From Gordonia zhaorongruii (GTDB lineage Bacteria > Actinomycetota > Actinomycetes > Mycobacteriales > Mycobacteriaceae), in the NCBI RefSeq assembly GCF_007559005.1, contig NZ_CP041763.1, forward strand, positions 776,463 to 840,462: a stretch of DNA of 64,000 nt, given 5' to 3'. The first letter of the stretch is position 1. Every line of letters begins with the position of its first letter. Made by a program: the position numbers and the translations under genes. The notes under the pieces were generated by a model. That model was not told where the DNA came from. It saw only the letters and a list, made by a program, of their open reading frames with translations, and searched no databases. Shown here one piece after another: positions 59,341-60,078 of the stretch.

Positions 59341-59652
59341 TTACGTCTGTTGCCGAAGAACCTGCCCAAATTCGTCAACAGTGAGGGTCACAGTCTTCTT
59401 CTCGGTGGCCTGCATGATGTAGAGGATGAGCCATACGAGGCTCCAGCAACCGCATGTCACAAGTGTCAAGATCAGATGAAGCATGTGATTGATGGGCTTG
59501 CCGTATCGGAGGACGGCGTTGTAATCCGACTGCGATTCCACCATCGCTCCACGGACAACCTCGTTGTGAACGCCTTGCGCGAGACGGCTCTTTCGGGTGT
59601 CGGGGTCGGCCTTGGGTAGTGGGCCGTTCGTTGGGTACCCCGGTTGCGTCAT
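59341..59652 (-). CDS. Small membrane protein with CGCW motif
   Basis: The 103-residue protein has a hydrophilic N-terminus (PGYPTNGPLPKADPDTRKSR) and one or two close membrane segments (MLHLILTLVTCGCWSLVWLILYIMQATEKK), then a short hydrophilic tail. The YGKPINHMLHL-(x)-CGCW block is shared by small actinobacterial membrane proteins that also occur in phages, so phage origin is possible (memory-based, not searched). GAAGGAG lies 7 bases ahead of ATG 59652. The gene lies next to an AT-rich stretch and a tRNA. Confidence 0.75.
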   Translation of the reverse strand: MTQPGYPTNGPLPKADPDTRKSRLAQGVHNEVVRGAMVESQSDYNAVLRYGKPINHMLHLILTLVTCGCWSLVWLILYIMQATEKKTVTLTVDEFGQVLRQQT

Positions 59653-59885: not shown

Positions 59886-59959
59886 TGCCCCCAGTCGGAC
59901 TCGAACCGACACTTTGCAGATTTTAAGTCTGCTGCCTCTGCCAATTGGGCTATAGGGGC
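59886..59959 (-). tRNA. tRNA with anticodon UAA (nominally Leu), class I structure
   Basis: The 74-base cloverleaf on the minus strand has a 7-bp acceptor stem (GCCCCTA/TGGGGGC), a 3-bp D stem (GCC/GGC) with GG in the loop, an anticodon stem GCAGA/TCTGC with loop CTTAAAA, and a T arm GTCGG-TTCGAGT-CCGAC. The discriminator base is A; CCA is not encoded. The anticodon reads UAA, which decodes UUA (Leu). A bacterial tRNA-Leu should have a long variable arm, but the variable loop here is only AAAGT (5 bases). The identity is therefore doubtful even though the tRNA shape is clear. Confidence 0.8.
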
Positions 59960-60078
59960 GTGCGGTCAAGCATGCCAGGGCTGCGGTGTCGTGTGGCATC
60001 GGGCCGCCGGTCTTGGGAACACGCTCGCGGACGGCGTTGTTGAACCGGGCAACATCTCACGTATGGAGGCGCATCATC

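What the first reader, a model, noticed from the sequence alone, without database searches (positions are those of the whole stretch)
59886..59959. tRNA with UAA anticodon but short variable loop
The cloverleaf is complete, yet a UAA-anticodon (leucine) tRNA with only 5 variable-loop bases contradicts the class II structure of bacterial tRNA-Leu. UUA is very rare in this high-GC genome. The tRNA may carry a different amino acid, be a phage-type tRNA, or be a minor regulator-type tRNA. It lies next to an AT-rich segment (45% GC in one line) and a phage-like small membrane gene.
Basis: partly seen in the sequence, partly recalled or inferred. Interest (0 to 1): 0.55.

Follow-up and report, generated by a model that had tools for sequence, protein, structure and literature searches.

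The report
Short-armed leucine tRNA of actinobacteria
This is a real transfer RNA that reads the rare leucine codon UUA but lacks the long extra arm that textbooks give every bacterial leucine tRNA, and it is not an oddity of one genome: Gordonia, Mycobacterium, their relatives and many phages carry this short-armed type.

Summary
In detail: window 59959..59886 (minus strand) encodes a full cloverleaf with anticodon UAA and a 5-nt variable loop. It is the only UAA-anticodon tRNA among the 49 tRNAs found in this Gordonia genome; the four other leucine tRNAs (CAA, UAG, GAG, CAG) have long arms. It keeps the leucine D arm (three base pairs, A14, A15, G18-G19, A20a, unpaired 13/22), U48 and A73. 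In this genome only leucine tRNAs have that D arm, and a 2023 review names A73, A15-U48, G18G19 and A20a, not the long arm, as what E. coli LeuRS needs. UUA codons in carriers align with leucine as often as UUG codons do. All 59 Gordonia genomes searched match its pattern. In Mycolicibacter, Corynebacterium and two complete Gordonia genomes the UUG reader is short-armed too, with no long-armed copy found. Twelve of twelve phage records checked carry short-armed leucine tRNAs. Best reading: a leucine-charged class I tRNA-Leu(UAA), the sole UUA decoder here; not a regulator, not another amino acid. It contradicts the review's statement that tRNA-Leu has a long arm everywhere except animal mitochondria. 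Charging was not measured; origin (phage or cell) is open.

The parts
59886..59959 (-). class I tRNA-Leu(UAA) gene: 7-bp acceptor stem GCCCCUA/UGGGGGC, D arm GCC-CAAUUGGCAGA-GGC, anticodon loop CUUAAAA, variable loop AAAGU, T arm GUCGG-UUCGAGU-CCGAC, discriminator A73, CCA not encoded
   Evidence: ARAGORN, Rfam 63.8 bits, fold, D-arm comparison with the other tRNAs of the genome
59934..59950 (-). leucine-type D arm: 3-bp stem, 13/22 unpaired, A14 A15, G18 G19, inserted A20a; shared in this genome only with the four class II tRNA-Leu
   Evidence: D-stem covariation in relatives
59969..59977 (-). promoter-like element TGGCATGCT starting 18 nt upstream of the mature 5' end
   Evidence: YATGCT within 70 nt upstream in 21 of 30 Gordonia genes examined, mean 0.5 in shuffles; 13 of the 21 as TGNCATGCT, 11 of those starting 17-19 nt upstream; function inferred

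Best explanation
The gene encodes a working leucine tRNA of class I shape and is the only reader of UUA codons found in this genome. The cell's leucyl-tRNA synthetase charges it as it charges the four class II leucine tRNAs, because it recognises A73 and the elbow (A15-U48, G18-G19 and the inserted A20a in a D arm of three base pairs) and not the long variable arm. The long arm was lost, or the gene was replaced by an armless one, without loss of leucine identity. SerRS, which depends on the long arm, should ignore it. In Mycolicibacter, Corynebacterium and many Gordonia genomes the UUG reader, tRNA-Leu(CAA), has the same short-armed form, so there both UUR leucine tRNAs are class I. Shown: structure, sole UAA anticodon, leucine D arm, A73, U48, conservation, UUA aligned with leucine. 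Inferred: charging by LeuRS, transcription, avoidance of SerRS.
For: 49 tRNAs in the genome; all read with ARAGORN; class II are Leu CAA, UAG, GAG, CAG, four Ser and Tyr; no other UAA. The leucine D-arm motif occurs in 5 of 47 distinct tRNAs of the genome: the four class II Leu and this one. D-arm-unbiased cellular class I genes (pattern, 50 loci fetched): 29 of 29 unique genes with a CUUAAAA loop have the motif, U48 and A73; 10-25, 11-24 and 12-23 pair in all 29, with covarying changes at the first two; 13-22 never pairs. One LeuRS gene over the cut-off in the genome. E. coli LeuRS needs A73, A15-U48, G18G19, A20a and not the long arm (passages of PMC9976931). UUA sites with homologues: 71.5% leucine over 38 sites, UUG 70.6% over 725 (UUA masked); in Mycobacteriales 16 of 21 sites have a leucine majority and none a phenylalanine one. 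Mycolicibacter sp. MYC123 and Corynebacterium yonathiae have class I readers for UUA and UUG and no long-armed ones, as do Gordonia G018 and G031. The pattern is present in 59 of 59 Gordonia (29 of the others read as full tRNAs) and in 31 of 31 genomes of the family (G302 there by its CAA gene, its UAA gene is). In three sets (cellular UAA, viral UAA, viral NAG), each unique within itself, A73 is present in 318 of 318 and U48 in 315 of 318 genes; in seven phage tRNAs with the same D arm but Gln, Asn or His anticodons A73 is absent from all.
Against: No charging, expression or mass-spectrometry data. A15 with U48 is not leucine-only: Lys(CUU), Asn, Trp, both Gln and Arg(ACG) of this genome have it too. 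The acceptor stem equals that of the genome's tRNA-Lys(UUU), and by pairwise score that tRNA is as close as Leu(CAA) (33.1 against 31.9). Only 38 of 188 UUA codons had homologues to test; nine of the 38, and five of the 21 in Mycobacteriales, have no leucine majority. In viruses 4 of 23 D-arm-unbiased class I UAA genes lack the exact motif and 4 lack U48. The 318 count leaves out 12 dropped readings, and among 24 dropped hits of the non-leucine set two identical ones (L529, L548) have A73 and, by ARAGORN, an 8-nt anticodon loop. The tRNAscan-SE authors describe a human Leu(CAA) gene without the long arm that is really Met-like (passage of PMC8450103), so an anticodon alone proves nothing.
Confidence: 0.92

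Rival explanations
1. It is a phage or prophage tRNA that sits by chance on the chromosome and supplements a host tRNA.
Against: No host tRNA to supplement: no other UAA tRNA found in the genome. Pattern present in 59 of 59 Gordonia, with a conserved upstream element in 21 of 30. Of seven neighbouring ORFs scanned, four pass a Pfam cut-off (DSBA, DUF3616, APH, PucR-type helix-turn-helix) and none of these is a phage family by name. An ancient phage origin of the whole type is not excluded.
Confidence: 0.04
2. It carries another amino acid (Phe, because A35, A36 and A73 are shared with tRNA-Phe, or Lys, because the acceptor stem equals that of tRNA-Lys) and UUA is reassigned or mistranslated.
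For: Class I body; acceptor stem identical to tRNA-Lys(UUU) of the same genome.
Against: UUA columns align with Leu at the UUG rate and not with Phe or Lys; a D arm with A20a is seen only in Leu tRNAs of this genome; the same architecture occurs with CAA and NAG anticodons, so it follows leucine anticodons, which Phe or Lys enzymes would not.
Confidence: 0.02
3. It is a non-translating or regulatory tRNA, or a decaying pseudogene.
For: UUA is rare (0.38 per 1000 codons in the window), so little translation depends on it.
Against: Paired stems, compensatory D-stem changes in relatives, presence in the whole genus sample, and the only reader found for a codon that is used.
Confidence: 0.02

Closest known systems
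Bacterial class II tRNA-Leu (E. coli, Streptomyces bldA type)
   Same: Leucine D arm with A20a and unpaired 13/22, A14, A15-U48, A73; reads a leucine codon
   Different: Variable loop of 5 nt instead of a long arm (13 to 18 nt in this genome's class II Leu)
Animal mitochondrial tRNA-Leu(UUR)
   Same: UUR-reading leucine tRNA without a long arm, specified by A73 and A14 (passage of PMC9976931)
   Different: Here a bacterial chromosomal tRNA with a stable cloverleaf, in a cell whose LeuRS must also charge long-armed tRNAs
Phage-encoded short-armed tRNA-Leu
   Same: Same D arm, variable-loop length and A73; 12 of 12 named phage records checked: 7 UAA, 3 UAG, 1 CAA, 1 AAG
   Different: Acceptor stems vary widely in phages; in this genome the gene is the only UUA reader found
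Allo-tRNAs (8/4 and 9/3)
   Same: Unusual tRNAs, some with leucine or UAA anticodons (passages of PMC7609411)
   Different: Allo-tRNAs have an 8/4 or 9/3 branch and (recalled) a long variable arm; two tested ones inserted serine (same passages). This one has a 7/5 body and a short loop
Short-loop tRNA-Leu(TAG) in a tRNA gene cluster of Mycobacterium mucogenicum-clade genomes
   Same: Leucine anticodon and short variable loop (passage of PMC6582537)
   Different: There an extra copy beside a normal long-armed isoacceptor; here the short form is the only copy found for its codon

Membership tests
class II bacterial tRNA-Leu | long variable arm (10 or more nt) | tested here: not met
   AAAGU, 5 nt; 5-6 nt in 104 of 104 unique cellular relatives that form a cloverleaf
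tRNA-Leu (isotype, LeuRS substrate) | A73, A14, A15-U48, G18G19, A20a | tested here: met
   the list of elements from PMC9976931 passages
tRNA-Leu (isotype, LeuRS substrate) | leucine at its codons | tested here: met
   UUA columns 71.5% Leu over 38 sites, UUG 70.6%; indirect, by homologues
tRNA-Leu (isotype, LeuRS substrate) | charged with leucine | not testable with these tools
   needs an aminoacylation assay
class I tRNA | 7-bp acceptor, 5-bp T stem, 4-5 nt variable loop | tested here: met
allo-tRNA | 8/4 or 9/3 branch | tested here: not met
   7/5 branch, 5-nt loop
tRNA-Lys or tRNA-Phe | UUU/CUU or GAA anticodon and a D arm without A20a | tested here: not met
   anticodon UAA; D arm has A20a, those of Lys and Phe in this genome do not match the motif
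phage-type tRNA | lies in a phage genome or prophage | tested here: not met
   no phage family among the seven neighbouring ORFs scanned with Pfam (PHROGs not searched); 59 of 59 Gordonia. Relatives do lie in phages

The most novel reading that the evidence does not exclude
Armless leucine tRNAs form one lineage that moves between phages and actinobacteria and has replaced the cells' own long-armed UUR leucine tRNAs, for UUA and in many genomes also for UUG. [quoted passage not shown] passages of PMC13096335) would not touch an armless leucine tRNA. LeuRS does not need the arm, so leucine is an isotype of the long-armed class that can escape this way.
Probability: 0.12. Interest if true: 0.82.

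Novelty: new variant of a known kind. Interest (0 to 1): 0.62.

Why it matters
A 2023 review of tRNA identity gives every tRNA-Leu outside animal mitochondria a long variable arm (passage of PMC9976931). Many actinobacteria, Mycobacterium and Corynebacterium relatives among them, have a class I tRNA-Leu as the UUA reader and some as the UUG reader too. That is a natural test of the in vitro result that LeuRS does not need the arm. It warns against deciding Leu or Ser identity by arm length in genome annotation. It bears on UUA-based regulation in actinobacteria (bldA-type control), on toxins and nucleases that target class II tRNAs, and on where cells and phages got their tRNAs. Gordonia offers a natural experiment: a class I Leu(CAA) pattern is present in 43 of 59 genomes, while this genome has the class II form.

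Tried and rejected
Considered and rejected: a longer arm by another fold (the fold and the Rfam match agree on 5 nt); a hidden second UAA tRNA (49 of 49 Rfam matches read, none; pattern searches show one match in G000); reassignment of UUA; allo-tRNA (other branch); prophage cargo (no phage family among seven neighbouring ORFs by Pfam; PHROGs were not searched).

Led nowhere: synteny. The DsbA-family neighbour lies in 5 of 29 other Gordonia loci and the small membrane gene in 0 of 29 (flanks of about 1.5 kb), so neighbourhood does not help. Origin by sequence: among 13 of the genome's tRNAs compared, tRNA-Lys(UUU) and Leu(CAA) are about equally close, so loss of the arm and conversion of a class I tRNA cannot be told apart; no tree was built from 74 nt.

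Slips and losses: the DsbA gene was read one base out of frame; one search repeats it correctly. In one search the NAG set held 117 of 120 stretches, and the viral set 117 of 120, because loci already held under earlier numbers were not all identified. Dropped readings: 1 (cellular UAA), 3 (viral UAA), 8 (viral NAG) and 24 of 31 in the non-leucine set. Of those 24, seven had anticodon GGA with no T arm, and ARAGORN found no tRNA in the five of seven checked; L529 and L548, the same sequence with A73, are read by ARAGORN with an 8-nt anticodon loop, and L542 and L550, the same sequence with A73 and an unpaired anticodon stem, are not called. Scanning for CUUAAAA leaves out G302, whose loop is AUUAAAA (L117). 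The pattern needs TTAAAA and so misses class II genes with TTAAAC. For the codon test, 150 sources were used (window, L001-L030, L131-L249), not loci L031-L130 also held then; 150 of 188 UUA codons had no usable homologue.

Full report
What was checked. The tRNA at 59886-59959 (minus strand) is real: ARAGORN, Rfam (63.8 bits) and folding agree on a cloverleaf with a 7-bp acceptor stem, anticodon UAA and a variable loop of 5 nt. It is the only tRNA found in the window.

The genome. The window lies in a 3.23-Mb genome of one contig. The genus is Gordonia: a genome of the same genus, G012, has a contig of 105,731 bases with this tRNA at the place where Gordonia sp. 'Campus' has it. The genome has 49 tRNA matches, all read with ARAGORN. 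Class II tRNAs are four Leu (CAA, UAG, GAG, CAG), four Ser and one Tyr. There is no other UAA anticodon, and by the ordinary decoding rules C34 of Leu(CAA) does not read UUA, so this tRNA is the only UUA reader found. One LeuRS gene passes the family cut-off.

Leucine identity in the sequence. The D arm GCC-CAAUUGGCAGA-GGC has three pairs, an unpaired 13/22 and an inserted A20a. Among 47 distinct tRNAs of the genome this motif is found in five: the four class II Leu and this one. U48 and A73 are present as well; A15 with U48 also occurs in six other tRNAs of the genome, so that pair alone is not specific. A review read in passages (PMC9976931) gives A73, the A15-U48 pair, G18G19 and A20a as essential for E. 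coli LeuRS, and states that variants without the long arm and the anticodon arm remain active. [quoted passage not shown]

Leucine in the proteins. In 150 sources (window, 30 Gordonia loci of which L001 overlaps it, 119 named loci) 188 UUA codons were found among 278,397 codons. At 38 UUA sites with aligned homologues, with UUA masked before the search, the homologues have leucine at 71.5%, against 70.6% at UUG sites, 61.2% at CUA sites and 21.5% at UUC sites; 29 of 38 sites have a leucine majority and one a phenylalanine majority. In Mycobacteriales alone (chosen by record title) 16 of 21 sites have a leucine majority, the other five V, V, M, S and T.

Conservation. In Gordonia 59 of 59 genomes match the D-arm-and-anticodon pattern with UAA; 30 of these genes, this one included, were read as full tRNAs. 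In the family 31 of 31 genomes have a class I UUR leucine match (G302 only by its CAA gene there, its UAA gene appears). A pattern free of the D arm (276 of 396 genomes of the phylum match, chance matches included) separates class I from class II by length; all 21 family members show only the class I length, though a class II gene with TTAAAC would be missed. From 50 loci fetched from that search, 29 unique class I genes all have the leucine D-arm motif, U48 and A73, and the D stem covaries: 10-25 is G-C 24, U-A 4, C-G 1; 11-24 is C-G 28, U-A 1; 12-23 is C-G 29; 13-22 never pairs. Read through ARAGORN, 31 class I loci of that set gave 30 with the motif, the other being offset by ARAGORN. It lists Gordonia, Mycobacterium, Mycolicibacterium, Rhodococcus, Nocardia, Corynebacterium, Dietzia, Tsukamurella, Williamsia, Nocardioides, Arthrobacter, Microbacterium, Amycolatopsis, Actinomadura and others, and a few records outside the phylum: Planctomycetota, Rokubacteria, Deltaproteobacteria, Acidobacteria, Pyrinomonadaceae and two cyanobacteria. 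Among 104 unique genes from it, 104 have U48 and A73 and a loop of 5-6 nt; 10-25 is G-C 93, U-A 9, C-G 1, A-U 1.

The UUG reader too. Mycolicibacter sp. MYC123 and Corynebacterium yonathiae (a draft) have eight class II tRNAs each: four Ser, Tyr, and Leu GAG, UAG, CAG. Their Leu(CAA) is class I, as is Leu(UAA). Two Gordonia genomes of one contig each, G018 and G031, are the same. Pseudarthrobacter sulfonivorans has class I UAA with class II CAA, as does the window's genome. In one search, 43 of 59 Gordonia genomes show a class I CAA match and 16, this genome among them, do not. A paper on a M. [quoted passage not shown] this fits two short ones among five but the passages do not remark on it.

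Phages. A viral copy matches 192 phage records, most often of Streptomyces, Mycobacterium, Erwinia, Enterococcus, Acinetobacter, Vibrio, Pseudomonas and Lactobacillus phages. Twelve records were opened: all twelve hold a short-looped tRNA-Leu at the match, annotated tRNA-Leu, 7 with UAA (phages of Rhodococcus, Mycobacterium, Vibrio, Prochlorococcus, Pseudomonas, Cytobacillus, Acinetobacter), 3 UAG, 1 CAA and 1 AAG. In a D-arm-unbiased sample of viral contigs 23 of 98 unique UAA tRNAs are class I and 75 class II; all 98 have A73. Viral class I genes with NAG anticodons (CUN codons) gave 111 unique genes, all with U48 and A73. A complete scan for a narrower form of the same D arm with non-leucine anticodons gave 31 stretches, of which seven form tRNAs by my criteria, with Gln, Asn and His anticodons and never A73; among the 24 dropped, L529 and L548 (one sequence) have A73 and an 8-nt anticodon loop. 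Over the three leucine sets, each unique within itself, A73 is present in 318 of 318 and U48 in 315 of 318. The D arm was fixed by the search pattern in these sets; A73 and U48 were not.

Expression. Upstream of the gene 21 of 30 Gordonia loci have YATGCT within 70 nt (mean 0.5 in shuffles); 13 of them as TGNCATGCT, 11 of those starting 17-19 nt before the mature end. This suggests a promoter; transcription was not shown.

Mechanism. The simplest account is a class I leucine tRNA that LeuRS recognises by its elbow and A73. The long arm, used by SerRS and not needed by bacterial LeuRS, could be lost without loss of identity. How it arose is open: loss of the arm, conversion of a class I tRNA (the acceptor stem equals that of the genome's tRNA-Lys(UUU)), or uptake from phages.

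In print. Ten searches of the open-access library showed me no paper that describes class I tRNA-Leu as the normal UUR reader of actinobacteria; of most listed papers I saw only titles and abstract openings. Subscription papers and databases of tRNA genes were not searched, and the genes are annotated tRNA-Leu in phage records, so annotators have met them. Passages of PMC7609411, PMC6582537, PMC9976931, PMC8450103, PMC8629427, PMC11541572 and PMC13096335 were read. The link of bldA to UUA control is from listed abstracts and recall.

Noticed in passing
L097 and L125 (genomes G411 and G423): A second unusual UAA tRNA: variable region of 9 nt and a 15-nt D arm (GGCCAAYGGCGAGCC) without the leucine motif, A73. 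What charges it is unclear.
   Followed up: no
L410-L526, viral contigs: Phages also carry class I tRNAs with UAG, GAG, CAG and a few AAG anticodons, 111 unique genes, all A73 and U48: a class I leucine set for CUN codons.
   Followed up: partly
L528, L530, L537, L543, L552, L555, L556: The same D arm in phage tRNAs with Gln, Asn or His anticodons, with G73, C73 or U73 instead of A73.
   Followed up: no
L529:4142-4218 and L548:4578-4654: A phage tRNA with this D arm and A73 that ARAGORN reads with an 8-nt anticodon loop and a four-base anticodon UUAA.
   Followed up: no
L140, L143, L158, L200, L211, L223, L227: Class I tRNA-Leu(UAA) in records of Planctomycetota, Rokubacteria, Deltaproteobacteria, Moorena, Acidobacteria, Pyrinomonadaceae and a Synechococcales bin; chromosomal, phage-borne or mis-binned is not known.
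   Followed up: no
G020 (Gordonia), G131, G631, G686: Several copies of the class I UAA gene in one genome: three in G020, two in the others.
   Followed up: no
G000:C1:1436072-1437346: tRNA cluster with Val(GAC)-Cys-Gly repeated twice and a Val(CAC) gene on the other strand beside it.
   Followed up: no
window 59341-59652, minus: Small membrane protein with a sub-threshold DUF4234 match; not found in the 1.5-kb flanks of the tRNA in 29 other Gordonia loci.
   Followed up: partly
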